Positions 11,022-42,347 of a stretch of 64,000 nucleotides of DNA are shown piece after piece. The stretch covers positions 124,001 to 188,000 of the forward strand of contig JBBPEB010000002.1 in NCBI GenBank assembly GCA_039096225.1, read 5' to 3'. Below the pieces are notes generated by a model. It saw only the letters and a program-made list of their open reading frames with translations. It had not been told where the DNA came from and made no database searches. Numbering within the stretch: position 1 is the first letter of the stretch; each line of letters begins with the position of its first letter. A program made the position numbers and the translations under genes. This DNA is from Blastocystis sp. Blastoise. Taxonomy: Eukaryota; Sar; Bigyra; Opalinata; Blastocystidae.

Positions 11022-12661
11022 AAGTCCCTTTATAAATCCGGGGCACTGCACAAAACCAGGACAAATTTTATTTAAATTTTTTTGGAAAATTATAAATGTA
11101 ATATACCGAATATATGATTAATTAGTTTTTGTAAGAAAACAAAACAAATAATATTTTTTTAAAATTATTAAACACTCTTATTTTATATAGAAATTGACAA
11201 AGTTTATTAAAATAATATATAAAGAAAAATGAATTATTAAAAAAATATATATTTAATATAGTTTATATGTAAATAAAAGCAAACAATAAAGAATATAAAT
11301 ATAGTTACATGTTTCTAAACAGGGGAGGTAGAGGAATAACTTCTTCATTATCATTATTATATGGAGTAGTATTATCTTCATCTTCACCATACTCTCTTAA
11401 TGGACCAACAAGAATTCTATTTGATGCTTTTGATGATTAAGACGTTCTTCTTTCATTAGGTCTTTCTTCGAATCTATTAACAAATTCATCTTCAGCTTCA
11501 GTTAATAATCGAGATCTTATCCAAGCCTGTTTTATATTGCTTCTAGTAAAAGATTCAGATACAGCATCCTCAGATGCTTCTAATAATTCATATCTACCAC
11601 TGGTTTTAAAGAATTTCTTTAATGTGTTTTTATAAGATCCATAAACTACAAGATCTAATGGTTGAAACTGACTAGTCGTACCTTTTGGTAGTACTAGAAG
11701 ATCTATATGATTTTCTTCTAAGAGAGAAAGGACAGAAGAATCATTTCTTGTTGGATGAGAATCAAGAATAAGTAAAGCATATTGATCAATATTATTATCT
11801 CTCATTCTATTTACATGTGGTAGGAAGATATCATTTATCCATCCAATAAATATTTCAGAGTTAATCCATCCTGAAGGTGCAAAAAAAGTCTTTAAACCAT
11901 GAATATTATGTTTATCTAATTCTTTAGGATCATATGTTTGTTGTTCACAAACATAAGAAGACTCAACATGAGAACCATCAGCAGAAATACAAACAATAAG
12001 AGTAAGATGACCATGAGAAGTTCCTTGACCAGTCATTGGAATAAAACCATCAGGAACAGCAACTACTTGAAATGATTTAACAGAAGGAGTTGACCAACTT
12101 TCATCCATATTAAATATTAAATGATTAGGATAATTACGTTCCTTACGAAGAAATGAAATATTTCTGAATAATGTTCTAGCACATCTTTTACTAGGAATAG
12201 CATTAAATAAATAAACAGTTATAGGTTTCTTCAAAGATATATTATTCTTTATAAGGAGTTTTCTAACAAACGAATCAGATACATCATTAATATTATTAGT
12301 ATTAGTACATCTTTCATGAAGTATAGAATAAATATAATTAATAATATCCTTTTTGGTGACACATTTCTTTTCAACAGCCTTCTGTGTAATCCAATCAATA
12401 ATCTTTCTTTCATCTTCATCAGTAAGAATTGATGGACGTCCTGAGGATAGAACAGAACCTCTTTCTTGAACAGACACTTTAGCACGATGAAGAGTACTCT
12501 TCGTTGTACAAGATAAATAAGCAGCCTTTCTAAATGATAATCTTCTTCTTCCATCTTTTCCATCAAATATTTCAGTCATCTTCAGTGCTTTTCTTCTAGG
12601 ACTAGTAATACTCATAATTTCAGGATGTTTTAGGATCTCAGCATCTTCTTTCGATGCATTA

Positions 12662-13177
12662 AAGTCCCTGGAAAAAACCGGTCCTCTGGAAAAAACCGGT
12701 CCATTTTTTTTTAATGTTATTTTCATGTAAATACGGGTTTTTTTAACCACAAAAACAAAATAACCACGATTTTTCATTTTGTTTTATAAACATTTTTGTT
12801 TATATAATCATTACTATATATGTCATTCACTTCCCATATCACTTGACAGAATTGTTATGTGGTAATTATCACCAAAATCTGCGATATAATATTATATTTT
12901 GACAGTGTAATCTTATTTATTCTCGATAAGTCAATTTAAGTCAGGTTGAAGTGACAATCAACTATTATCATGGTATGTGCTGCAAAAGTGATGGAAGGAA
13001 ATATAGATGACTCGCATATTAATGATGTTGCTGATAAAACTGTGTATAAAACAAAAAAAATTTAAAAATCGTGGTTATATATTTTTTTGCCGTAAAAAAA
13101 TTATTATTTACATGAAAATAACATTAAAAAAAAAATGGACCGGTTTTTTCCAGAGGACCGGTTTTTTCCAGGGACTT
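12662..13177. mobile_element. 516-bp MITE nested in the pogo transposase gene
   Basis: Ends AAGTCCCTGGAAAAAACCGG and its complement, extended inverted repeats of >100 bp, TA duplicated at 12660-12661 and 13178-13179. The terminal AAGTCCC equals that of the host pogo element, so it was probably moved by a related transposase. Its interior contains an old hAT-type MITE. Confidence 0.9.
12824..13003. mobile_element. degenerate hAT-type MITE inside the nested MITE
   Basis: About 180 bp align by eye with the 181-bp MITE of Helitrons A2 and A3: an ACTTCCC end, CACCAAAATCTGCG, TTTTGACAGTGTAATC and GATAAGTCAATTTAAGTCAG. Many substitutions show it is older. Confidence 0.65.
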
Positions 13178-16184: not shown

Positions 16185-16229
16185 TTATACATATGTATAT
16201 ATATATAATATAATACTATAATATATATA

Positions 16230-19170
16230 TCTTATATATAAAGGCAATAGAAGTTGGATATTTGTGTCCCAAGTTCACGGACCGTTTATTCTATGATGGT
16301 TAAGGCTATGATAATATCCTTTTAGTATGTTATATATTATGTTCCAAATTTTATTTTAGTTTTTTTAATTTTTCAGAAATTCCATATCTAAGGCCTCAAA
16401 ATAGTCCGAGAAGTTTTGCCGACCGTTAGCAAGTTGGCCGTCCTATGAAATCGATTAAAAATTTTTGAAAACTCATTCTTATTGGATAAAAAGAACACAA
16501 ATATCTTTGTCTATTTTCGCGCCAAAAATTTATTGACATGGTCAAAGTTTATACTTCTAATCATTTTGTCTTCATTTTTTCAAAAAAAATTCAATTATAT
16601 TTCTTTTTCTTTTGCAAAACTTTATTTTGTAAATTTGTTATCCATTTTTTTTTTATCTTTTATTTTAAAAATTTCTTTTTCTTTTTTAATTTCTTCTTTT
16701 TATATATTTTATTTATTTTTTTATATTTATTATTTATAAATTTATTTTTTAATTTATAACATTTTTCGCCACACATAAAAACAACTTTTAAAATAGAAGA
16801 AACAATTTAGACAAATAATCAGTTATCAAAGTGACTTAATAGACTTAACTTTAACCTATATGCATAAAATAACCTAAATAATGATAATGTATGAAGCTTT
16901 GAAAAAATTTGATCCACAAAGTTTTGAGATATCGGACACATTCTCTTTTGACCCTTTTAAAATTTAATGAAAACTATCTGGATCATCATGATAACTCATG
17001 AAACCATGCTAAAAGTCATTAAAACCTGTTTTTAGCATGTTGAAAAATTAACAAAAAAATTCAATTGCGTGTTCTGTCAACATTTTTTATTTTATTAATT
17101 ATTAAACGTTACAGGGTTTATTTTAGATGTTTATATTTATGAATTATTTGAACACATTTTTAAAATAAAAAGGTAGAAGAGATATCGAAATCATTTTACT
17201 CTTAATAAAAATTTTTATACTTAATATTTGTAGTTTAGATAAAATTCGCCACTCATTGAACCCATCAGGTTTCTTTAAAGACAAGAATGAGTGGATATCT
17301 GTTTGGTTGACCCTCATAAAATCAATTTATGACTACATTTATGAATACAGTGACCTATATTATACACAAATCTGTCATTATTGCATATTTATGACAACAA
17401 AGTTGGTGTATCGGCAGATTTCGACCTCTTTAATTTCGAGTTTTGACTTCATATTTGGTGTAAGGATGCCTTATATGTTACATTATGATATTTCATATCT
17501 TTAAATGCTTTTTAAAAAAGGTTAAAAAAGTTAATTGCGACTTTGTACCAAGAAAAGTCGTCCTAACACACTTTTTAAAAGTCATATTAATAGTTATTAT
17601 AATATTACATACATATATAAAGTCAAAATATAAAATATCGTTGAATCTCGGGGTCAAAAATGAAAAAGAAATTTTGATATTTTTCAAAAATTTAATTTTT
17701 ATTGTTTTAACTAAGGTCAATGTCAACCATCATTTTTCTATCAATAAAGTCAATATTTATATAATATATAATATGTTTTATTCTAATTATAAATTTGTAA
17801 AAATTAGTTTTTAAAAATAAAAATTGACTGAGAAATAAAATTTCAAAGTGGCACGTCTCTCAAAAAAAGAATAATTTCTTAATACTGTTTATTGATTATT
17901 GTATCCCTATAAACACTATTAATTGACTGAAAAATTATTCTATAACTACAAGGATTATATATATTTATTTATATTAATGAAAAATTATATTAGTCAAACT
18001 AAAAATTATTTTTAGTATATATCATATATAAGTATGACATATATTTTCATATCATAAGAATTCATTTTAAAAAATCAATAATTATTTTTTTATTTATACT
18101 TTTGTGTTCTTTTAAAAGTAGCTTTATATATAAATATGGAATAACTTAATCATTTAATTTATAAATTTTTAAAATATAAGCAAACATAATTTTGGTTCCA
18201 TTACTTTTAGACATATTTATTATGAAATGGATTCTTTATGAATATAAAAACAAAATTATCTATTATTAAAAAAGAAAATATGAATACAAATTCTTATTCA
18301 TAAACTATCATGCATTTTTATTATATATAGATAAGTAGATATTAGTGATATGAAATAGTAGTAGTTAAACTTTTGAATTTTTAAAATTTTAATTCTTTTT
18401 TTTTCTATAAAATACAACGCGTTGTTTTTTATAGGAAAAAAAAAAGAATTAAAATTTTAAAAATTCAAAAGTTTAACTACTACTATTTCATATCACGAAA
18501 CATATATATTCATTTAAAAAACTATATAATCTAAATAAGATCTATTTAGATAGAATATATGCATGATACCATAAAATCAATTTGATAAATGAATAAATAG
18601 AGTAAAGAATATATATAAACATTTTGATTTAGTCACTGATAGCATAAAATTATAAAATTATTTTTTTTATATAAAACGAATAAAATAAAAATATGTATTA
18701 ATAAATAAACATTCCAGAATGAATAATTTAAGCAGAATAACTTGAAATAATAAATAGAATTATTGTTTATTTTCATATCATAATAGCTTTCATAGATAAA
18801 TGTAACTTATATTAAGAAACTATTATGATATGTGTCATTAATGAAACTATTATAAACTATAAACTACTTTAAAAAGTATTTTTATGTATCTATATGATAG
18901 TATACATTTAAAAAAATATTTATATAAATTATAAAGCTCCAGTGTCTTCCCTGTCACTGGACGAAATTGCCACGTGGCAATTGTCACCAAAATTTGTGAC
19001 AAAATATTTATTTTTGACAGTGTAATTTTATATTTTTATGACTAAGTCAATTTAAGTCTGGCTGAAAGTGACAGTCAGCTATTGTCATGGCAATTGTCAC
19101 AAAAGTCAGGGAAGACATTGTAAAGCTCTAAAGGTTACGAAGCATCGGCGAAGCCGATGCCACCCGCTAG
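16230..19170 (+). mobile_element. non-autonomous Helitron, family A, copy A2
   Basis: Same ends as A1 (TC... and hairpin plus CTAG), flanked by A and T. Body nearly identical to A1, apart from a 181-bp MITE with 8-bp duplication near the 3' end. The palindrome lies at 18345-18496. It begins 46 bp after B1 ends. Confidence 0.9.
18940..19120. mobile_element. 181-bp hAT-type MITE in Helitron A2
   Basis: Termini CAGTGTCTTCCCTG and the complement of CAGGGAAGACATTG. The 8-bp target duplication TAAAGCTC stands on both sides (18932-18939, 19121-19128). CARTG ends with 8-bp duplication are typical of hAT elements. Copy A1 shows the empty site. Confidence 0.92.
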
Positions 19171-20285
19171 TTTATTTTAATTTACATAGTTTTATCATGT
19201 ATATATAGGATAGGAAAGATGTTCCACATATTTACATATTATAGATATTATAATGATTAGTTTCATACTTTATATATATTATCTTGCTATTTATTTTTTA
19301 TTATGTTATATTTAATTGTATAGTATTCCTTTTGTTTTATAATTTTTTAGGAATGAAATTAGTGCAGAGAATTCTTATCGAATAGCAGAGAAATGCAATA
19401 CAAATTATTCAACATTACATTTCTATTAGATTACATTCTTTAATATGTTTATGGAAACTTATAGACCTTTCAAACATTTTCAATTTACTTATACATTTAT
19501 AAAATCAATAATTCGTTAAAATAAGATATGTTTTAAACAATAGTTTGTGTATTGTGAATTTTATCTTTATAAATAACTATACTAAATATATATTTTGATT
19601 CTCTATGGCCTTCATATTATAGATCAAATACTGTTCTATCAATATGTCTCACAAGAATGTTTAATTGTAAATAAGGTTTTTAAAATAACAAGTTTTTTGC
19701 TCTTTCTAAGTCTAAAAGCGTGTTTGCAATGAAATGATTTAGCTTAATACAAACATGATCATTTATAAATCAATTTTATAATCAAACAGACATTTTAGTA
19801 AAAAAGAGTAGAATTCTAGAATGTTAATACACCCCCTGAAAACAAAGAATTTTATATAGACATTTTCTATGAAAAAAAGATTTTATTTAAGGGCTTGGTT
19901 GTGTTTTTTAAAAAGCAGATGTTTAACATAATTATTTTTTTTTGCTTATTTGAAACTATTTTTTATATAAAGTACCTGAAACAGACTGACCTCCTGCACC
20001 AAAGTGACACTTTTTCTGAAAAACGTAATTCTCATGGGAATTTATTTTATTACAGTTAAAAATATAAAAAAACATGGAAATCAGTTTTTTTTTTAATTGT
20101 TAAACAAAACAATATGTGATAACAAATATATATAATAAATAAAAGAAATTATAATAAAAAAATGAAAAAAATATATAGAAATTATAATAATTAGCATGAA
20201 TATTAGTAGTATAGTATAAATTAGAAATTAATAAATTAAAAAATAAATATATATATAATTATTAAGAAGAATATATTATAAAGCA
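19171..20285. other. A+T-rich spacer
   Basis: No gene or clear repeat that I can support. Confidence 0.5.
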
Positions 20286-30149: not shown

Positions 30150-30560
30150 TTAGAATATATATAAATAATCATTATAATCAACATAAATAAAAAGAGATAA
30201 ATAATCCATATTTTATAAACATTTTTATAAATATACTTAAATAATTATAAATATAAACAAAAGAATCAGTCAAATTTCATTTTTTCATTATTTTTTGCAT
30301 ATTTTTGTATATGCAAAATCCAAAACTGGAAGACGAAATCCAAAAATTTGACAATCCCTACAACAACGTCAAATACAGAATAATTAATATAAACAAAGAA
30401 TTGTGTATTTTTTTCCACTTAATTATTTTCTCAATAATTTACAACAATAAAAACATAAGCATTTTGCCAAGTTTATCGCGGTATTAATAGTACTGAAAAA
30501 TAGACTGTCCTGAGTCAAGTTTTACAATTTAAGGCGTCCTGAGTCAATTATCTCAAATGG
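30150..30560. other. spacer with a weak 60-codon frame
   Basis: A frame at 30305-30487 (plus) has mixed codons at its start and an A+T-driven tail. I do not call it a gene. Confidence 0.4.
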
Positions 30561-31001
30561 AAAACTCTGGTCTGACTGTCCATGATACAAATAGGCTCGG
30601 CTCAATTTTTCAGTGTAAAAAGAAATAAATTTTTGATTTTTTGACTGAATTTTGGTTCTAAGTCATAGAGACAAGCTTATTCACTTTTAATTACATTTAT
30701 GACTATAAGAGGGTCTAAACTTCAAACACTACTATAAAATTTAAAAAATTTGGACACCATGAATTCACAAAATTAACACTTTAAAATAAAGAAAAACGTT
30801 TTGGGTATTATGTGACCCTCTGTAAATAAACAATAATGTCAATTCTTTATTAAAATTTGTCTAATAGGGTTTTAAAGTCTAAATCAAAAGTCGACTGAAA
30901 AAAGTGTCAAAATTTTGTCAAAATCCACGATTTTTGCCTAAGTCTATGAAACTACTCAATTTTTAGTGGCTGAACAAATTTTGAACTGAAATAAGCCAAT
31001 C
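30561..31001. repeat. dispersed repeat D, copy 1
   Basis: About 440 bp align with 53451-53886 (shared phrases such as GGCTCAATTTTTCAGTGTAAA and GAGAGGGTCT in near-identical order). Non-coding. It ends 33 bp before the origin-like hairpin of the viral locus. Confidence 0.75.
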
Positions 31002-31033
31002 ATATGATTTAAAATGATGAAACCAGAATAACA

Positions 31034-31053
31034 GTGATATATTATTACATCAC
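31034..31053 (+). promoter_or_regulatory. CRESS-type replication origin hairpin
   Basis: Perfect 5-bp stem GTGAT/ATCAC closes the loop ATATTATTAC, which contains TATTATTAC (31040-31048). This fits the NANTATTAC nonamer that Rep proteins of circular ssDNA viruses nick. It lies ~650 bp upstream of the Rep1 start. Assignment as an origin is by motif and context. Confidence 0.7.
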
Positions 31054-31362
31054 AATTTGCTCTCAGCTCTCACTCACAAAGATATTCACGGGGCGGCTAA
31101 ATATAAAGAACGGTATATACGGGTAAAAGCCGCGAATGTAAAAAAACTTTCCCGTGAATACACATGAACATGTGCATTGAGTTGAATTTCTCAAGTAGTA
31201 ATATATTAGAAAGGTGGTTCGAAAGAATAGAAAACAAAGACAATATAGATATAAAAAATCAAGATCAACTAATTGTAAGATTTACTTCTGACTTTCGAGT
31301 CAAATACTCTTATGATGATCTTTGTTTCGTGTTTCGCTGAGAGCAAATTGTGATGTAATAAT
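31041..31362. repeat. 322-bp module bounded by a perfect 27-bp inverted repeat
   Basis: 31041-31067 and 31336-31362 are exact reverse complements, each including the ATTATTAC core. The module encloses a 58-codon reading frame. In the second locus copy only the right arm and the inner 14 bp of the left arm are kept. Confidence 0.85.
31164..31340 (+). CDS. small 58-aa frame in the common region, unknown function
   Basis: ATG to TGA, beginning MNMCIELNFSSSN and ending DDLCFVFR, with a mixed composition unlike the A+T-driven chance frames nearby (Trp, Cys and several charged residues). The copy at 36209-36385 is identical, but the whole block is identical, so this says nothing about selection. 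The stop codon overlaps the inverted-repeat arm. I recognise no family. Confidence 0.35.
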   Translation: MNMCIELNFSSSNILERWFERIENKDNIDIKNQDQLIVRFTSDFRVKYSYDDLCFVFR

Positions 31363-31380
31363 GCGTCATCGCTCAATTTG
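31344..31380 (-). promoter_or_regulatory. second origin-like hairpin, inverted orientation
   Basis: CAAATTG/CAATTTG outer stem and GTGATG/CATCGC inner stem enclose a loop which, on the minus strand, reads ACGCATTATTA followed by C, giving CATTATTAC (NANTATTAC). Copy 2 is at 36389-36425. It may be a relic of the first hairpin moved with the inverted repeat. Confidence 0.5.
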
Positions 31381-31697
31381 ATTGGAGGAATCTTGAGTTT
31401 CTCCGATCGGATTGGATAAGTTGTGTTTGGTTGTAAGTGTAATTCTTAATATTTATAATTAGGGTCCCAAACCTTTAAATTGAAATAACTTTTTATCCAG
31501 AAGGAATTAGACCCTAAAAATAGCAAAAAAAGAGTTTTGGGAATGGGTACAATTTAATTTTTATTGACTGGTGATTAGGTCCTGACAAGATATAAGGGCA
31601 TATTCTGTATTTTTAATTATGCTGACGTGGTTTATATTTATTTTATTTTATAATTTATTTTATAATTTATTTTATAATTTTTAGTAAAAAAAAAAAA

Positions 31698-33423
31698 ATG
31701 CAAAATAATAATACTAACCCTGTATATTAATAAATATATTTAAGTTATTGTTATATAGAACCGTCAGTCTCAATATTGGACTCTTACTTTATTTGGTGAA
31801 GACCTTTTACATTTTAATGAAGTAATCCAACCCAGTTGGAATAGTAATGGTCTTCCATTTGAAATAGTATATAAATATATTATATATATATATATATAGA
31901 ACTATGTTGCTTTATCAAGAGAAGTATCTCCGACTACAAACAACACTCATGTACATTTATATATGGAAATGAAAAAAAGGTTAAGAAGAAATCAGATAAT
32001 AAGATTACTATCCTTAGAGCATACTGATGTAAGACCAAGGGAGTGGTCACGAGAGGCAACTTTAATTTATTTAAGTGAAGTATATATTTATATATATTAA
32101 TTTAATTATTTAATTATAAATATTAGATAAATGAAATAGATGAATATTACAATACAAGCAATACACTTGGATATGGAGCAAACTTTCAAAATGGAATGCA
32201 TCGCGATTTAATAAATGCTTCTACTTATAATGGTGTTCTTTATAATATGAATAATAATAATAGCTTTGCTAGAATAGACCCAATATCTACAGCTCCTATG
32301 AATTTTACTCATAATAAAGTCAAATATTCTAAAAACAAAAAACGTATATACATTATAATTTATATTATATATATAGATCCAAAAAAAATATCTGAAGAAG
32401 TTGCTTCAATGATAAAAAATGGTTGTACTTATGAAGATATATGGGAAGAATATGCTTCCTTTGCCCTATTACATTCAAATAACATAAAAAAAGCAATCTA
32501 TGACTTTAATACCAAAAAAAGAAATACTGCACCTATAGTTTTATATTTATATGGGAAAACTGGAGTAGGTAAAACTTATACAGCTAAAAAAATATGTGAA
32601 CTAGGCGAAAATGAAGATGGTAAAGGATCTTACTACATGAAGAATGGAGATATTAAATGGTATATATTATATTATATTCTATATTTATAGGTGGGATGGA
32701 TACAAAGGTCAGTTTGGCATCATTATTGATGATTTTAGAAAAATCTATAATGATAAAGACCTTCTTCGTATTTTAGATTATTATGATGTAGGAGTGGAAA
32801 CAAAAGGTTCAACAGTAAAAATCACCTCACCTCTAATTATATTTACGTCTGATAGAAGCTTAAAAGAAAATTTCAAAGAACTTTCAAATGATGAATTAGA
32901 ACAACTACTCAGAAGATTCTACAATGAATATGAATTACTTGAAGATAATACTATTGATTTCAAATATAGCAAAGCTAAAGATGATTACATCAAAGGTATC
33001 AGACGTAATCTACTATATAAAGATGATGAAACCAAATATATACAAGCCGCTGATATTATGATGAAAATTAATAATCAATACAAACCAACAGTCAATATAC
33101 CCATACAAATAGAACTAGATAATGAACTTACCCTTAGCTCACCTCCAACAACTCCTCGTATATCTCTTCCTACTATTGAAATAACTACTCCTAAAAAAAC
33201 AAATTTCTGTCACAAAAGACCTAATACTCCTATACCTATTCTAGATTTATCATCTTCAGATAACGAATATAGTAATGAACTCATTGATCTCACTTTCACT
33301 GATAATGAAGAAGACGATGAAGAATATTCTGATCATAATAAACCTATAAGTCTTTCATGGGATAGTAGCGAAGATGATTATTGTATACTCCCAGACTCTC
33401 AAAACATTAAACAAGAATTCTAA
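31698..33423 (+). CDS. rep: Rep1: replication initiator of a CRESS DNA virus-like element, six exons
   Basis: Proposed exons 31698-31721, 31759-31866, 31900-32079, 32127-32343, 32377-32659, 32691-33423. All introns (31-47 nt) are GTATAT...AG and phases agree, giving 514 residues. The HUH endonuclease domain shows a TLTLFG stretch (residues ~16-21, motif I position), HVH (61-63, metal-binding motif II) and a Tyr at ~101 in YLSE (motif III position). The superfamily 3 helicase domain shows Walker A GKTGVGKT (~236), Walker B GIIIDDF (~281-285), LIIFTSD (motif C position) and an LLRRF arginine region. The C-terminal ~120 residues are acidic and Ser-rich. In known viruses this protein nicks the origin and unwinds the genome. 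Odd points: spliceosomal introns throughout, and Glu where motif III normally has Lys. It may be expressed by the host or be a still-mobile element; I cannot tell. Confidence 0.88.
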
Positions 33424-33529
33424 ATTCTATATATTTATTATCTATTGAGTTTTTCTGATTTCATATCTTTTCTCAGTTATATCTTTGTTTTAAAAACTTA
33501 TTTGTTTTGTTATATAATTCATATGCAAC

Positions 33530-33610
33530 TCAACACATTGTGCAATTGTGAAATTGTGTATCTGTGAAAATGTGAAATTGTGATTTTGTGAAATTGTGAA
33601 ATTGTGAAAT
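33530..33610. repeat. short tandem repeats of a GTGAAATT-like unit
   Basis: About eight imperfect 8-10-bp units (GTGAAATTGT) lie between the converging ends of Rep1 and the 412-aa gene. They could be iterons or a transcription-end signal. Confidence 0.6.
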
Positions 33611-33708
33611 AATATTTGTGTTGAAGTGCAGTGAGTGTGAGTAGTAATAATAAAAATTGAACAAAACAAAATTAATTTAAGACAAATAAAAATATATATA
33701 CACATAAA

Positions 33709-34947
33709 TTAAAATTTAGTTAAAGTATTTATTCCTTGAACCCATGGAGAAACACCAGGTATAGCACTAGCAGCTGTAGCTATATTTTGAACAGTTTCAC
33801 TATTCCAAGACCTTTTAAATTTATTCCAGAAATCAACTACACCATTCCACATAGTTTGAAAATCATTATAAGAAGAAGGATAACAAAAATCTAATGATTG
33901 AGTTAAAATAGCACAAGCATAAAGAGCTTGTTCATCTAATAAAGGAGGATTCTTTAATAATGGGAAATACTCACTATTATAAGAAGGAACTAACTCATAA
34001 CCATTACATATTTTTAAAGTAAATGGATTGTTAAAATTTGAACCTTCAACTCTAATAATACCAAAATTAAATCCAGTATGTAAGAAAGAAGGAACATATT
34101 CAGTTACTTCTATAGGTAGCATAACCTTAGTAAATATTCTTTTAGACATCCAAGTATCATAATCAAATATATTCATTTGAGCACTAGCACTTCCTAATAA
34201 TCCATTAATAAAATATTCATAACTATCTCCTGTATCAAGTTGTTTCTTTTGAAATATAGGTGGCCTATAATAATTCTTATAACCATAAGATAAATGTTGA
34301 GGCATATAACAACCATCAGGGACATTAAATACTTTATATTTTGGAGAATAAGAAGTAATAGCATTAGAATCTAAAGGAATATAAGGATTCATATAACTAT
34401 TAAAAGCTTGATAAGATAAATCTTGAGATTCTACACTACCACTAGTAGTATACATAGTATCTACACAATACGGTACTTGAATACCATATATAAGACCTTG
34501 CATATTATTAGTATTACCAGCCCATTTTAATGTACAACCACGAAATAATCCACGACCTAAATTAAAATCTTCTTGATTTTGCTGCCAATTAGGATCTTTA
34601 ACACCCATAATACATGTTTGAGATGATGATGTTTTATCCACAGTATTATACCAAGTAAATGTACCATAAATCAAAATAGGATAAGTAGACCATGGTGTTG
34701 CAATTATAGTAAAATTATTATATAAATCTGGGACAACAGCTCTAGGATCTACAAATGTATCTTGATCTATAGATATATTAAACTTATTATTTAAAGTATA
34801 AATCATGTGGGTTTGGCCATCAGGTACACCGTCAACAGGTATAGAAGTATCATCACAAGGATTAACGTAACGCTTAAGATAAAGGGCTCCCGCAGAGGAA
34901 CTAGCCATTGACAACTTGTCATTTATTATAGTACCTAAACTAGACAT
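33709..34947 (-). CDS. 412-aa putative capsid protein of the CRESS-like element
   Basis: Single uninterrupted frame from ATG at 34947 to TAA at 33709. Composition is that of a beta-rich structural protein: many Tyr, Asn, Pro and Gly, few charges. The segment RGCTLKWAGNTNNMQG...YGIQVPYC resembles the strand-loop-strand pattern of jelly-roll capsids of noda/tombus type, the type also found in bacilladnaviruses; this is a motif impression only. The last ~45 residues contain three Trp and a likely amphipathic helix, then an Ala/Gly-rich tail. It converges with Rep1 and diverges from the 248-aa gene across a 198-bp promoter region with three 35-bp repeats. No introns, unlike Rep1. Confidence 0.55.
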   Translation of the reverse strand: MSSLGTIINDKLSMASSSAGALYLKRYVNPCDDTSIPVDGVPDGQTHMIYTLNNKFNISIDQDTFVDPRAVVPDLYNNFTIIATPWSTYPILIYGTFTWYNTVDKTSSSQTCIMGVKDPNWQQNQEDFNLGRGLFRGCTLKWAGNTNNMQGLIYGIQVPYCVDTMYTTSGSVESQDLSYQAFNSYMNPYIPLDSNAITSYSPKYKVFNVPDGCYMPQHLSYGYKNYYRPPIFQKKQLDTGDSYEYFINGLLGSASAQMNIFDYDTWMSKRIFTKVMLPIEVTEYVPSFLHTGFNFGIIRVEGSNFNNPFTLKICNGYELVPSYNSEYFPLLKNPPLLDEQALYACAILTQSLDFCYPSSYNDFQTMWNGVVDFWNKFKRSWNSETVQNIATAASAIPGVSPWVQGINTLTKF

Positions 34948-34990
34948 TTAAAATAATTTATGCAAAATAACAAAACATATTTATAAGAAA

Positions 34991-35095
34991 ACGAATTTAT
35001 ATATACAGATAAACTGTCTCCTAATACGAATTTATATATTCAGATAAACCGTCTCTAAAAACAAATTTATATATTCAGATAAACTGACTCCATTA
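34991..35095. promoter_or_regulatory. three 35-bp direct repeats in a divergent promoter
   Basis: Units 34991-35025, 35026-35060 and 35061-35095, each like ACGAATTTATATATTCAG...AAACYGTCTC. They occupy the intergenic space between the 412-aa and 248-aa genes and so could be shared activator or iteron sites. Confidence 0.85.
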
Positions 35096-35145
35096 ATAAT
35101 TATTAATCAAATCATATCATATTTTATTTATTTTATTTACAATAA

Positions 35146-35892
35146 ATGCCTTATAGATACTCATCCAGATATAGAGGTACTCAACGTACCTATTATAGAA
35201 GAAGAAGATATAATAGAAATTCAAACGCTGTAACCACTTATAACAATGCAGTTAATTCTTTTAGAACAAATTGGGCAACTATCGCCGAAGATACTACCGT
35301 AGGTGGAATCGCAAATAAACACAAACTTAGGCACCAATTAATGCTTGTAGCCAAAAAATGTGGAAGAATGTACGTAGCTCAAGCTAGAACACTATTAACA
35401 TCAACAGATTATACTATACCAATTCAAATATTTATACCAAGCGCTACAGGTGACGACGAAAATGCAAAGAACATTAAAAAACTCTGCAACTCTACTATCA
35501 AACAAATTATAAACACAGTCTACACAATTAACAAAAACGGAATCAAAAAAGAATATATATATAGACTAAACGGTTTACTCTATACCTATCCATTCACTGC
35601 AGAACCACTCGCCTATGATTTCACACTACCCATCTACTATGCATCCGATGATTTTACAAAAGCAGAAACAATACTAGTTTTTATATACCAAATGGGAGGA
35701 ATCAACACATTTCCTATTATGTATAATATTTCAGAAGGAGGACAAATGACTTTCAGAACAGAACCACAATATAATACCGTTATCACTGCATTGTTCGACG
35801 AAGCTACAAGATACGTTGCCGCTGCACAAACAGCAGGAACATCACCTATGGTATACTATGCTCAAAATCTACCAGATAGATTACGACACTAA
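35146..35892 (+). CDS. 248-aa protein with Arg/Tyr-rich N-terminus, putative second structural protein
   Basis: ATG at 35146 to TAA at 35890-35892, no introns. The first ~30 residues are packed with Arg and Tyr (RTYYRRRRYNRN), the usual nucleic-acid-binding and nuclear-import arm of small ssDNA-virus capsid proteins. The rest is mixed, with no catalytic motif I recognise. Two basic/structural candidates in one element leave open which is the capsid: this one by its Arg arm, the 412-aa protein by size and jelly-roll-like composition. It lies between the shared 35-bp repeats and the second common region. Confidence 0.55.
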   Translation: MPYRYSSRYRGTQRTYYRRRRYNRNSNAVTTYNNAVNSFRTNWATIAEDTTVGGIANKHKLRHQLMLVAKKCGRMYVAQARTLLTSTDYTIPIQIFIPSATGDDENAKNIKKLCNSTIKQIINTVYTINKNGIKKEYIYRLNGLLYTYPFTAEPLAYDFTLPIYYASDDFTKAETILVFIYQMGGINTFPIMYNISEGGQMTFRTEPQYNTVITALFDEATRYVAAAQTAGTSPMVYYAQNLPDRLRH

Positions 35893-36099
35893 ACATACTA
35901 ACACTACAAACATTAATTCTTGTCTAATATAATAATATATAATTAAAAACACTGTTTTGTTAATTCTTTTTAAAAAAAAACATTAAAAAAAAAAAAAAAA
36001 ATCGAACACCAAACTCGACTGCGCGACCATACTCTTTGTGAACTTCTACAATAAAACAAGATAAGGATCCGAGAGTACTATACAACCACAAAACTGAGC
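35893..36099. other. short spacer with A runs
   Basis: Downstream of the 248-aa gene: A runs (35975-36000), then unique sequence that ends sharply where the second common region begins (36100). No origin hairpin equal to 31034-31053 precedes this copy. Confidence 0.6.
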
Positions 36100-36720
36100 A
36101 TTTGCTCTCAGCTCTCACTCACAAAGATATTCACGGGGCGGCTAAATATAAAGAACGGTATATACGGGTAAAAGCCGCGAATGTAAAAAAACTTTCCCGT
36201 GAATACACATGAACATGTGCATTGAGTTGAATTTCTCAAGTAGTAATATATTAGAAAGGTGGTTCGAAAGAATAGAAAACAAAGACAATATAGATATAAA
36301 AAATCAAGATCAACTAATTGTAAGATTTACTTCTGACTTTCGAGTCAAATACTCTTATGATGATCTTTGTTTCGTGTTTCGCTGAGAGCAAATTGTGATG
36401 TAATAATGCGTCATCGCTCAATTTGATTGGAGGAATCTTGAGTTTCTCCGATCGGATTGGATAAGTTGTGTTTGGTTGTAAGTGTAATTCTTAATATTTA
36501 TAATTAGGGTCCCAAACCTTTAAATTGAAATAACTTTTTATCCAGAAGGAATTAGACCCTAAAAATAGCAAAAAAAGAGTTTTGGGAATGGGTACAATTT
36601 AATTTTTATTGACTGGTGATTAGGTCCTGACAAGATATAAGGGCATATTCTGTATTTTTTAATTATGCTGACGTGGTTTATATTTATTTTATTTTATAAT
36701 TTATTTTATAATTTATTTTA
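36100..36720 (+). repeat. common region, copy 2 (621 bp upstream of Rep2)
   Basis: Near-identical to 31055-31674, at a spacing of 5045 bp. The 58-codon frame recurs at 36209-36385 and the inverted hairpin at 36389-36425. Confidence 0.95.
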
Positions 36721-36744
36721 ATATTTATTTGATATTTTATAAAT

Positions 36745-37623
36745 ATGAGTGATAATAATAATGTTGTATTTATATAATTATTATATATATATGTATATAG
36801 TCACCACAAAGTCAATATTGGTTTTGTACACTATTCGGTGATGACCGAGATTTCTTTTTTCAAGAGACTCTACCTAATTGGGAGGAAAATGGTTTACCAC
36901 AGGAAATTATGTATGTGGCGTATGTAACTGAACCTAATAACGAAACACATAATACGCATACACATTTATACATTGAATTAACAACAAGAAGAAGAAGAAA
37001 TAAGGTCCGAAGAATGCTTCAGTTGGAACATACAGATGTTAGACCTCGTGATGGAACTCGTGAAAACGTACTATATTATTTATCAGAGGTATATACATAT
37101 ATATATGTATATATATATATATATAGATAAATAATTTACATGAAATATATCGTAACCAAAATACTAGAGGCTATGGAGCTATAACAAGTGGTACTCATCG
37201 TGATTTATTTGCAAGTCAAACTTTCAATGGAAGACTGTATAACTTAGAATCAAGAAACATAAGTAGTGAACCTTCTCCGTTATCACCTGGTCCTATTAGA
37301 TTTATTAAAACAGATGTTAAATATTATAAAAATAAAAAACATCCGAAAAAAAATTCCGAAGAAGTAGCTACAGCAATAAGGAATGGTAATACTTACGATG
37401 CTATATGGCACGAATTTCCGGGATTTACACTCTTACATTCACAAGCAATTAAGAGATTAATCTATGATTTTAATGAAAAGAAAAGAGTAGAATCTCCAGT
37501 AGTTATATATATATGGGGCGAAACTGGTTTGGGAAAAACCTATACAGCAAAAAAACTTTGCGAATTAGGTCCAAACAAATTAGGTGATGGTTCATATTAT
37601 TTAAAGAATAGCGATATAAAATG
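36745..37623 (+). pseudogene. rep: Rep2: diverged CRESS Rep, 3' part lost at an element insertion
   Basis: Visible exons 36745-36765, 36801-37088 and 37127-37623. Introns 1 and 2 sit at the positions of Rep1 introns 1 and 3; Rep1 introns 2 and 4 are absent. Motifs: CTLFGDD (motif I position), THTHLYIE (HxH), YLSE (Tyr ~100) and Walker A GETGLGKTYTAKK. Identity to Rep1 near Walker A is about two thirds by eye, far lower than in the common region upstream. The donor of the next intron is present at 37624, but element C-3 begins at 37647. The rest of the helicase domain is not found next to it, so this copy is broken unless a very long intron spans the insertions. Confidence 0.85.
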
Positions 37624-37646
37624 GTATATTAATATATTTATATATA

Positions 37647-39402
37647 CAAGCGTTTCACGACTGGCTACGCCACCTACGCTTGAGTTTTGATAGTTGTCAT
37701 CTCTTAATTGTTATATTTTATGTTTTTTTTTAATATTATGTTTATTTTTATGTTTTTGTTATTCATTTCTATTTTTTTTATTTTTAGGATGAAGACTATT
37801 TCATATTTTATAAATTATTATTTCAATTGTTTTAGTTGTTATCTTCTATTGTTTAGTTATTAGTTTAGTATATTCTAAATAATTCAATTCATACTTTATT
37901 GATAATTCCTATTTAACATTTTATATTACATTTTTTTGAGTATTATTTCCTTTTTTATTTAGTATCATTTTAGCTATTTTTATTATTGATTATATATATT
38001 TATTGTTTATTAATAATAATTGATTAGCTCTTGTGTTTTATTTTTGATCTTATTCATATTTCTATTTCTATTTCTATTTCTATTTCTATTTCTATTTCTA
38101 TTTATATTTCTATTTAGATTTCTATTTAGATTTCTATTTAGATTTAGATTTAAGTTTAGATTTATATTTATATTTATATTTATATTTACATTTATATTTA
38201 TATTTATATTTATATTTATATTTATATTTATATTTATATTTCTATATTAATTCACTTTTCTTTGTTAATTTATTTATAACTGTATTTGTAATTATAAATT
38301 CATTTAGTTTTATAAATATTTTATACTTTAAACAATATTATTATGATTATAAAAAATTTTTTATTTTAAAACTTAATATTATCAGTTATATCTTATCTCT
38401 AAGTATTTATTTTTTATTTTTAATTATTCTATATAATTATTATTATGAGAAACAACTTACTCTTTTGTCTAAAAAATATTATTTATTCTTTTATGAATTT
38501 TCTCATATATTATTTTATTTCATTTTAAATTATTATCATTTTTATCTCTATTTGATTTTTTATATTCTATCATTTCTTTTTATATATACTATTATAAATA
38601 TATATATTTAATATTTTATTATACCCCTTTTTCGTATTAATAAATGTTTAATTATATGTAATAGTTGCTATAGTTTAATACTATCAGATTCAAATGTTCA
38701 TAATATTATTCTTTTTTTATTACTCCTATTTCAATTTGGATTTTTAAAAACAAAAAATATTTTTAATAATTAAAAAATATATATTATTCTATATAATCGA
38801 TAATAACTCATAGAGTTCTTTTATAAATATTTATCATATATAGAATTTTTTTTATAAAAGAAAAAAGAATTATTTTTAAAAATTATCTATTCATTTTTTA
38901 TAATGTTTTCAAAATCATTTCATTAAATGAAACGAAAAACTAAATATAAACCAAAAATTACATTCTATATCATAAATAGATTTAGTACTTTAAAATACTT
39001 TACCTATTGTACATGAAATAAAGTTTATAAAACAAATAAGTTATTTTTAAAAAACTCTAAAAAACTTTTAACATTTTTTTCAAACACATTCACTTTTATT
39101 AAAACGAATTTTATATTCATATACATATATATTGAATTTATTATTTAATTTGTAAAGAATAACTTGAATCTCTTTTGTTTAAAGCCACAATTACAAAAAA
39201 TGAGTTCTTTTGAAAGACAAAAAACATTCTTTAAGCTATAATATTTTTATATTTAGTGACATAAAAACGTATTATACTGTTTTAGAAGCAATTAAAATCA
39301 TTTTACCCATTCTAACATTCCTATCAAACAGTCAACCATATTTAATTAGACTAATTTTTAATATTTTATATTCTATTATGACTCTATTTATTATTATTAT
39401 AA
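37647..39402 (-). mobile_element. element family C, copy C-3 (partial)
   Basis: The family C terminus (CAAG at 37647 on the plus strand) faces left; the body matches the right 1.7 kb of C-2, including the hexanucleotide array. It stops at Helitron A3. The sequence beyond A3 does not continue C-2, so this copy was truncated or rearranged. It lies in the Rep2 intron. Confidence 0.7.
38056..38245. repeat. (TTTCTA)n / (TTTATA)n array
   Basis: Hexanucleotide array within C-3. Long frames read from it are not genes. Confidence 0.95.
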
Positions 39403-42342
39403 CTAGCGGGTGGCATCGGCTTCGCCGATGCTTCGTAACCTTTAGAGCTTTACAATGTCTTCCCTGACTTTTGTGACAATTGCCATGACAATAGCTGACT
39501 GTCACTTTCAGCCAGACTTAAATTGACTTAGTCATAAAAATATAAAATTACACTGTCAAAAATAAATATTTTGTCACAAATTTTGGTGACAATTGCCACG
39601 TGGCAATTTCGTCCAGTGACAGGGAAGACACTGGAGCTTTATAATTTATATAAATATTTTTTTAAATGTATACTATCATATAGATACATAAAAATACTTT
39701 TTAAAGTAGTTTATAGTTTATAATAGTTTCATTAATGACACATATCATAATAGTTTCTTAATATAAGTTACATTTATCTATGAAAGCTATTATGATATGA
39801 AAATAAACAATAATTCTATTTATTATTTCAAGTTATTCTGCTTAAATTATTCATTCTGGAATGTTTATTTATTAATACATATTTTTATTTTATTCGTTTT
39901 ATATAAAAAAAATAATTTTATAATTTTATGCTATCAGTGACTAAATCAAAATGTTTATATATATTCTTTACTCTATTTATTCATTTATCAAATTGATTTT
40001 ATGGTATCATGCATATATTCTATCTAAATAGATCTTATTTAGATTATATAGTTTTTTAAATGAATATATATGTTTCGTGATATGAAATAGTAGTAGTTAA
40101 ACTTTTGAATTTTTAAAATTTTAATTTTTTTTTTTTTCCTATAAAAAACAACGCGTTGTATTTTATAGATAAAAAAAGAATTAAAATTTTAAAAATTCAA
40201 AAGTTTAACTACTACTATTTCATATCACTAATATCTACTTATCTATATATAATAAAAATGCATGATAGTTTATGAATAAGAATTTGTATTCATATTTTCT
40301 TTTTTAATAATAGATAATTTTGTTTTTATATTCATAAAGAATCCATTTCATAATAAATATGTCTAAAAGTAATGGAACCAAAATTATGTTTGCTTATATT
40401 TTAAAAATTTATAAATTAAATGATTAAGTTATTCCATATTTATATATAAAGCTACTTTTAAAAGAACACAAAAGTATAAATAAAAAAATAATTATTGATT
40501 TTTTAAAATGAATTCTTATGATATGAAAATATATGTCATACTTATATATGATATATACTAAAAATAATTTTTAGTTTGACTAATATAATTTTTCATTAAT
40601 ATAAATAAATATATATAATCCTTGTAGTTATAGAATAATTTTTCAGTCAATTAATAGTGTTTATAGGGATACAATAATCAATAAACAGTATTAAGAAATT
40701 ATTCTTTTTTTGAGAGACGTGCCACTTTGAAATTTTATTTCTCAGTCAATTTTTATTTTTAAAAACTAATTTTTACAAATTTATAATTAGAATAAAACAT
40801 ATTATATATTATATAAATATTGACTTTATTGATAGAAAAATGATGGTTGACATTGACCTTAGTTAAAACAATAAAAATTAAATTTTTGAAAAATATCAAA
40901 ATTTCTTTTTCATTTTTGACCCCGAGATTCAACGATATTTTATATTTTGACTTTATATATGTATGTAATATTATAATAACTATTAATATGACTTTTAAAA
41001 AGTGTGTTAGGACGACTTTTCTTGGTACAAAGTCGCAATTAACTTTTTTAACCTTTTTTAAAAAGCATTTAAAGATATGAAATATCATAATGTAACATAT
41101 AAGGCATCCTTACACCAAATATGAAGTCAAAACTCGAAATTAAAGAGGTCGAAATCTGCCGATACACCAACTTTGTTGTCATAAATATGCAATAATGACA
41201 GATTTGTGTATAATATAGGTCACTGTATTCATAAATGTAGTCATAAATTGATTTTATGAGGGTCAACCAAACAGATATCCACTCATTCTTGTCTTTAAAG
41301 AAACCTGATGGGTTCAATGAGTGGCGAATTTTATCTAAACTACAAATATTAAGTATAAAAATTTTTATTAAGAGTAAAATGATTTCGATATCTCTTCTAC
41401 CTTTTTATTTTAAAAATGTGTTCAAATAATTCATAAATATAAACATCTAAAATAAACCCTGTAACGTTTAATAATTAATAAAATAAAAAATGTTGACAGA
41501 ACACGCAATTGAATTTTTTTGTTAATTTTTCAACATGCTAAAAACAGGTTTTAATGACTTTTAGCATGGTTTCATGAGTTATCATGATGATCCAGATAGT
41601 TTTCATTAAATTTTAAAAGGGTCAAAAGAGAATGTGTCCGATATCTCAAAACTTTGTGGATCAAATTTTTTCAAAGCTTCATACATTATCATTATTTAGG
41701 TTATTTTATGCATATAGGTTAAAGTTAAGTCTATTAAGTCACTTTGATAACTGATTATTTGTCTAAATTGTTTCTTCTATTTTAAAAGTTGTTTTTATGT
41801 GTGGCGAAAAATGTTATAAATTAAAAAATAAATTTATAAATAATAAATATAAAAAAATAAATAAAATATATAAAAAGAAGAAATTAAAAAAGAAAAAGAA
41901 ATTTTTAAAATAAAAGATAAAAAAAAATGGATAACAAATTTACAAAATAAAGTTTTGCAAAAGAAAAAGAAATATAATTGAATTTTTTTTGAAAAAATGA
42001 AGACAAAATGATTAGAAGTATAAACTTTGACCATGTCAATAAATTTTTGGCGCGAAAATAGACAAAGATATTTGTGTTCTTTTTATCCAATAAGAATGAG
42101 TTTTCAAAAATTTTTAATCGATTTCATAGGACGGCCAACTTGCTAACGGTCGGCAAAACTTCTCGGACTATTTTGAGGCCTTAGATATGGAATTTCTGAA
42201 AAATTAAAAAAACTAAAATAAAATTTGGAACATAATATATAACATACTAAAAGGATATTATCATAGCCTTAACCATCATAGAATAAACGGTCCGTGAACT
42301 TGAGACACAAATATCCAACTTCTATTGCCTTTATATATAAGA
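39403..42342 (-). mobile_element. non-autonomous Helitron, family A, copy A3
   Basis: Reverse orientation: CTAG and hairpin on the left, TC end on the right (42341-42342), flanked as in A1 and A2. Nearly identical to A2, including the MITE at 39453-39633 with the same 8-bp duplication. Confidence 0.9.
39453..39633. mobile_element. 181-bp hAT-type MITE in Helitron A3
   Basis: Same MITE at the same site as in A2; duplication GAGCTTTA on both sides (39445-39452, 39634-39641). Confidence 0.92.
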
Positions 42343-42347
42343 TATAG

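What the first reader, a model, noticed from the sequence alone, without database searches (positions are those of the whole stretch)
31034..37623. Two diverged CRESS Rep genes share a near-identical 620-bp upstream block
31055-31674 and 36100-36720 differ by about one base, yet the Rep genes that follow are only about two-thirds identical in protein around Walker A and differ in intron content. Non-coding DNA is thus far better conserved than coding DNA. This recalls the common region kept identical between components of multipartite geminiviruses and suggests two co-replicating components, or a Rep-coding module exchanged behind a fixed control region. A simple tandem integration of one genome would give identical Rep genes.
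Basis: partly seen in the sequence, partly recalled or inferred. Interest (0 to 1): 0.92.

Follow-up and report, generated by a model that had tools for sequence, protein, structure and literature searches.

The report
Blastocystis provirus: two Reps, one origin
In the genome of a gut protist, copies of a small circular DNA virus lie head to tail, and the last copy carries a different, long-diverged replication gene behind the same control region, most likely a trace of recombination between two related viruses.

Summary
The 620-bp block at 31055-31674 recurs at 36100-36720 with no substitution and one indel, while the Reps behind it share 144 of 255 residues and are saturated at synonymous sites. 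The host is Blastocystis sp. Blastoise. The genome search found five full block copies, all in two arrays on contig 15: block-U1-block-Rep2 in the window and block-U1-block-U1-block-Rep2 elsewhere, with Rep2 cut at the same point. U1 is a 5,045-bp unit: block, intron-bearing CRESS Rep, a gene weakly matching 'capsid protein alpha' structures, and an arginine-rich 248-aa gene. Best reading: two related viruses recombined in an AT-rich repeat about 24 bases before the Rep start; exchange between blocks then kept them alike (one informative site). Two components sharing a common region are not excluded, but no second complete unit was found. Endogenous CRESS Reps in Blastocystis are known; a near-complete unit with a five-intron Rep, a capsid-type gene and a Rep replacement is a new variant.

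The parts
30555..31035 (+). dispersed host repeat on the left of the array, ending in CAGTG
   Evidence: 39 other genome matches among the 41 listed (a lower bound); 7 of 7 paralogues aligned with it keep CAGTG and diverge after it. The left limit is approximate.
31041..31067 (+). left arm of a 27-bp perfect inverted repeat (other arm 31336-31362) at the array's left junction; only 13 bp of it (31055-31067) is present in the inner block copy
   Evidence: I1; 27-bp reverse matches in both loci; inner left context read
31055..31674 (+). block copy 1: intergenic region of U1 in front of Rep1
   Evidence: single-strand DNA fold z = -3.8, none of 20 shuffles folds as well
31355..31363 (-). nonanucleotide-like CATTATTAC, candidate nick site; flanking GCGATG and CATCAC could pair as a weak short stem (read by eye)
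   Evidence: core ATTATTAC. The motif is at chance level in the window (34 found, 39.9 expected), and the local fold is not significant and does not show this stem (z -0.93); candidate only
31698..33423 (+). Rep1: six predicted exons 31698-31721, 31759-31866, 31900-32079, 32127-32343, 32377-32659, 32691-33423 (lengths sum to 1,545, divisible by 3)
   Evidence: last exon matches CRESS Rep structures 8xms E 1e-8, 7lar E 3e-8, 9pqj E 5e-7, 9pqq E 1e-6 and PF00910 E 8e-4, just below its curated cut-off; introns; lengths
33709..34947 (-). 412-aa capsid-type protein gene, open in all three U1 copies
   Evidence: whole-protein E 4e-6 to 'Capsid protein alpha' 7xgz and 7xpg, from two collinear stretches (about residues 14-61 and 292-365) of about 13 bits each, neither significant alone; open in 3 of 3 copies
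34988..35092 (.). 3 x 35-bp tandem repeat between the two divergent genes
35146..35892 (+). 248-aa protein with an arginine-rich N-terminus, no relative found; function unproven, possibly structural or DNA-binding
   Evidence: structure model too poor to use (pLDDT 38.5)
36100..36720 (+). block copy 2, in front of Rep2
36745..37623 (+). Rep2, first half only: exons 36745-36765, 36801-37088, 37127-37623; cut inside intron 5
   Evidence: NCBI gene model WA158_003545 (290 aa, P0009) of the same gene uses the same two introns; 9pqq Rep E 0.002
37646..39402 (+). hairpin-ended dispersed repeat abutting the cut Rep2
   Evidence: same terminus at three other places in the window; 38 other genome matches among the 40 listed (a lower bound); right limit

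Best explanation
The feature is an integrated head-to-tail array of a roughly 5-kb CRESS DNA virus of Blastocystis. The block is that virus's intergenic region (Rep leader and promoter, and probably the origin). In a cell holding this virus and a related one (Rep2), the Rep2 gene was joined behind the U1 intergenic region by recombination in the AT-rich 12-bp repeat just before the Rep start codon, during rolling-circle or recombination-dependent replication or at integration. The chimeric concatemer entered a repeat-rich region once. A segment with its flanks was then duplicated elsewhere on contig 15, and the block copies have since been kept alike by exchange between direct repeats. Shown: the arrays, identities, divergences, gene content and shared flanks. 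Inferred: the time and place of recombination, the replication mode, the origin, the continuing exchange.
For: Block 0 substitutions in 620 against saturated Rep synonymous sites, so block and Rep cannot share one history. The identity ends inside a (TTTATTTTATAA)n repeat, about 24 bases before both start codons. U1 recurs whole at 5,045-5,047-bp spacing. Both loci have U1 first and Rep2 last with the same cut, and share both flanks. No further Rep2 sequence was found. At alignment column 578 both window blocks carry T and all three blocks of the other locus carry C, so likeness follows the locus, not the gene behind.
Against: The edge lies very near the gene edge, which a fixed common region would also predict. 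The within-locus exchange rests on one site, and block C keeps one private substitution and one private indel. The rest of U2 is missing, so its own intergenic region cannot be seen. The origin motif and hairpin are at chance level.
Confidence: 0.6

Rival explanations
1. Two genome components of one virus, each with its own Rep, share a common region kept identical by recombination, as in bipartite begomoviruses or nanoviruses; the array is a mixed concatemer of both.
For: The shared region covers the candidate origin and nearly the whole Rep leader and ends at the gene edge. Rep1 and Rep2 share intron positions 1 and 3 and the start of intron 5, so both come from one lineage.
Against: Only half of one gene of the supposed second component was found in the genome. 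In the models named, one component or segment carries the replication Rep (recalled); two Reps 56% alike on one origin would be unusual. The left edge of sharing is unknown.
Confidence: 0.2
2. Two related viruses integrated side by side with diverged intergenic regions, and gene conversion in the host chromosome made the blocks identical afterwards.
For: Column 578 groups blocks by locus; the two U1 bodies of the second locus and their blocks A and B are identical, so the array is dynamic.
Against: Conversion needs well-matched templates over about 620 bp, and the intergenic regions of viruses with Reps this far apart are unlikely to be alike (inference). Block C keeps private differences.
Confidence: 0.13
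3. Assembly error: two loci or free viral DNA wrongly joined.
For: Near-identical 5-kb repeats are hard to assemble; the two loci differ in copy number (1 and 2 units).
Against: The same junctions and flanks stand in two loci with private differences.
Confidence: 0.04

Closest known systems
Endogenous CRESS elements of protists (Entamoeba, Giardia, Blastocystis)
   Same: CRESS sequences in protist chromosomes, including a 10-kb tandemly repeated element in a parasite genome (PMC7493932, passages). Endogenous Reps are marked for Blastocystis hominis (PMC6186406, figure-legend passage).
   Different: Here a unit with an open capsid-type gene, five predicted introns in Rep, and a second Rep behind the same control region.
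CRESSV1 / pecovirus-like viruses predicted to infect Blastocystis
   Same: Host prediction (PMC11281440, passages; the primary paper was not held).
   Different: Membership was not tested against those Reps. The separate intronless Rep3 at C15:604 kb may be nearer to them (a guess).
Bacilladnaviridae
   Same: Circular genomes of about 3.5-6.5 kb with Rep and a capsid protein thought to come from a noda-like ancestor; diatom hosts (PMC12667125, start of abstract and passages). U1 is 5.0 kb with a capsid-type protein weakly matching 'capsid protein alpha', in another stramenopile.
   Different: No bacilladnavirus match was found by sequence; the 412-aa protein has no arginine-rich arm (such a stretch starts the 248-aa protein instead); intron-rich Rep.
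Common regions of bipartite begomoviruses and nanoviruses
   Same: A non-coding region kept alike on molecules with different genes (PMC10653810, passages).
   Different: Here two different Reps follow it, and a second complete molecule was not found.

Membership tests
CRESS DNA virus (Cressdnaviricota) | Rep with HUH nuclease and superfamily 3 helicase | tested here: met
   Helicase part: Rep1 last exon to Rep structures E 1e-8 to 1e-6. HUH part by eye only (motif definitions recalled): motif II HVHLY/HTHLY; motif III keeps Tyr but has Glu where Lys is usual in both Rep1 and Rep2. Against: PF02407 (Viral_Rep) was not hit by the Rep1 and Rep2 pieces or the Rep2 model tested (the short Rep1 exon pieces P0007 and P0008 were not run).
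CRESS DNA virus (Cressdnaviricota) | circular genome with stem-loop origin and nonanucleotide | tested here: inconclusive
   Head-to-tail units of 5,045-5,047 bp suggest a circular source; CATTATTAC is present, but motif and fold are at chance level.
Endogenous viral element | viral DNA joined to host DNA on both sides | tested here: met
   Both flanks are dispersed genomic repeats, in both loci.
Bacilladnaviridae | capsid protein homologous to bacilladnavirus capsid proteins | tested here: inconclusive
Bacilladnaviridae | Rep groups with bacilladnavirus Reps | not tested
   No reference Reps fetched; no relatives confirmed in viral contigs.
Multipartite CRESS virus with common region | two or more separate circles that share the region | not testable with these tools
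   No second complete unit found in the assembly; free circles need reads.

The most novel reading that the evidence does not exclude
A two-component CRESS virus of Blastocystis in which both components encode a full, deeply diverged, intron-rich Rep but share one identical origin region, so that two Reps serve one origin.
Probability: 0.17. Interest if true: 0.85.

Novelty: new variant of a known kind. Interest (0 to 1): 0.6.

Why it matters
It ties a near-complete CRESS virus, with a capsid-type gene, to Blastocystis. It shows a Rep gene with several tiny host-like introns, some at positions shared by Rep1 and Rep2 and so probably older than their split. And it fixes in a chromosome a swap of the replication gene behind a kept control region, a step that could drive the evolution of small DNA viruses. 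It also gives a concrete sequence to look for in reads, to decide between recombination and multipartite genomes.

Tried and rejected
Dispersed-repeat reading: rejected (5 full copies plus 2 short inverted-repeat matches; the tool scores only its best candidates). The DNA search with Rep2 listed many further matches (156 counted, list cut); the other listed rows lie within query bases 328-432, the AT-rich intron 3 region and its surroundings, and were not counted as Rep2; likewise the short matches beyond the three unit copies. Relatives in IMG/VR: 8 of 8 scans used, 7 by protein (P0005, P0001, A1, A2, Rep3, A4, P0002) and 1 by a 40-base pattern, 0 confirmed; these need short exact words, so distant relatives could be missed. 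Protein database: three searches, each with only the genome's own protein. Structure of the 248-aa protein: pLDDT 38.5, not used. PHROGs and NCBIfam: nothing convincing. Rfam: one weak U7-like match in the flank, below gathering. An apparent lower divergence of the viral part than of the flanks between the loci was dropped: p = 0.0003 against the left flank and 0.02 against the first 2.5 kb of the right flank, but p = 0.75 with the three windows around the microsatellite left out; the counts first used were wrong and were corrected. A fold-back origin of the 27-bp left inverted repeat at a nick site is possible but untested.

Papers: passages only for PMC7493932, PMC6186406, PMC11281440, PMC5608401, PMC12667125 and PMC10653810; abstract and outline only for PMC2974675; listing with start of abstract for the others. 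Ten paper searches: in the rows listed (lists capped) I saw no report of this array; subscription papers are mostly not held.

Full report
What is there. The window is C15:124001-188000 of a 33.3-Mb, 34-contig genome. Two of its proteins are database records of Blastocystis sp. Blastoise on a contig of the same length, 1,322,594 bases (lineage). The block at 31055-31674 recurs at 36100-36720 with 0 substitutions and 1 indel. A genome search gives 7 matches: 5 full copies and 2 matches of 27 bases that are arms of an inverted repeat. All lie on contig 15: two full copies in the window and three at 790045-800757 on the other strand.

Anatomy. Between the two window blocks lies one complete unit, U1: block, Rep1 (+), a 412-aa gene (-), a 248-aa gene (+), then the next block; 5,045 bases start to start. 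The second locus reads block-U1-block-U1-block-Rep2. Its two U1 bodies are identical to each other (0 differences in 4,427) and differ from the window's by 7 substitutions in 4,425 plus 2 indels. In both loci Rep2 stops at the same place inside what would be its fifth intron and meets a hairpin-ended dispersed repeat. The left side meets the end of another dispersed repeat. Both flanks are shared by the two loci, so one integration was most likely duplicated.

Genes. The last exon of Rep1 matches CRESS Rep structures (8xms E 1e-8, 7lar E 3e-8), and NCBI's Rep2 model matches 9pqq at E 0.002. The Viral_Rep family PF02407 was not hit by the pieces tested. Rep1 has five predicted GT-AG introns of 31-47 bp; the six exon lengths sum to 1,545, divisible by 3. 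Published Blastocystis introns have a modal length of 30 bp (PMC5608401, passage). Rep2 shares introns 1 and 3 and the start of intron 5, and lacks 2 and 4; NCBI's model of Rep2 uses introns 1 and 3. The 412-aa protein matches 'capsid protein alpha' structures at a whole-protein E of 4e-6, from one stretch near each end, neither significant alone. The 248-aa protein has an arginine-rich N-terminus and no known relative.

Test of the contrast. Over 255 aligned residues Rep1 and Rep2 share 144 (56%); 33 of 48 fourfold sites differ and dS is about 1.5, so it is saturated. The block in front of them is identical apart from one indel. Common descent at an ordinary rate cannot do this; the block in front of Rep2 was acquired or homogenised recently. 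The identity runs to about 24 bases before both start codons and ends inside a 12-base AT-rich tandem repeat.

How it most likely arose. The block is the intergenic region of the U1 virus. Because both Rep2 blocks directly follow U1 units, the simplest origin is one recombination that put a related virus's Rep behind the U1 intergenic region within a replicating or integrating concatemer. Exchange between blocks probably continued in the chromosome: at column 578 both window blocks have T and all three others have C, although by position the Rep2 blocks should match each other. This is a single site. Against it, block C has one private substitution and one private indel.

Components or recombination. 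A common region on two components would look the same at this junction. What is missing is any second unit: Rep1's C-terminal exon finds the three U1 copies and a distant third Rep, the capsid-type gene three copies, and Rep2 its two truncated copies, the three Rep1 copies and Rep3. The 248-aa gene was searched in the window and the second locus only, where it occurs once per U1. I therefore favour recombination, and leave two components at about one in five.

Limits. Origin motif and hairpin are at chance level, although the whole block folds better than each of 20 shuffles (z -3.8). No relative was confirmed in viral contigs (8 scans) or found in the protein database beyond the genome's own proteins (3 searches), so family placement rests on matches to the structure library.

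Noticed in passing
L083 4801-5880, - strand (C15:603801-604880): A third, intronless Rep-like reading frame (7lar E 6.6e-17, PF00910 E 5e-7); the block search gave no match there; an independent CRESS insertion.
   Followed up: partly
37646, 42672, 26185 (-), 10476 (-): Dispersed repeats share a hairpin terminus (ACAAGCGTTTCACGACTGGCTACGCC...), preceded by AT-rich DNA; a possible uncharacterised mobile element family.
   Followed up: partly
30555-31035: A dispersed repeat of about 480 bp ending in CAGTG, with 39 other matches listed in the genome.
   Followed up: partly
31041-31067 and 31336-31362: A 27-bp perfect inverted repeat at the array's left junction; the inner copy keeps 13 bp. It copies the origin-like stretch, as if the end had been formed by fold-back at a nick site.
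   Followed up: partly
31903-32079 and 36801-37088; 32691-33423: Rep motif III has Glu in place of the usual Lys in both Rep1 and Rep2, and motif C has Asp for Asn in Rep1 and Rep3 (motif definitions recalled).
   Followed up: no
39401-42346 and 16226-19172: An inverted repeat of 2.9 kb, 99.86% identical.
   Followed up: no
34988-35092: 3 x 35-bp tandem repeat between the two divergent viral genes.
   Followed up: no
34119-35866: Between the loci, 4 of the 5 substitutions inside the 412-aa and 248-aa genes change the protein (1 of 2 and 3 of 3), giving no sign of strong constraint since the duplication.
   Followed up: no
11437-12777, - strand: Reading frame with a DDE_1 transposase domain (E 4.6e-15).
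   Followed up: no
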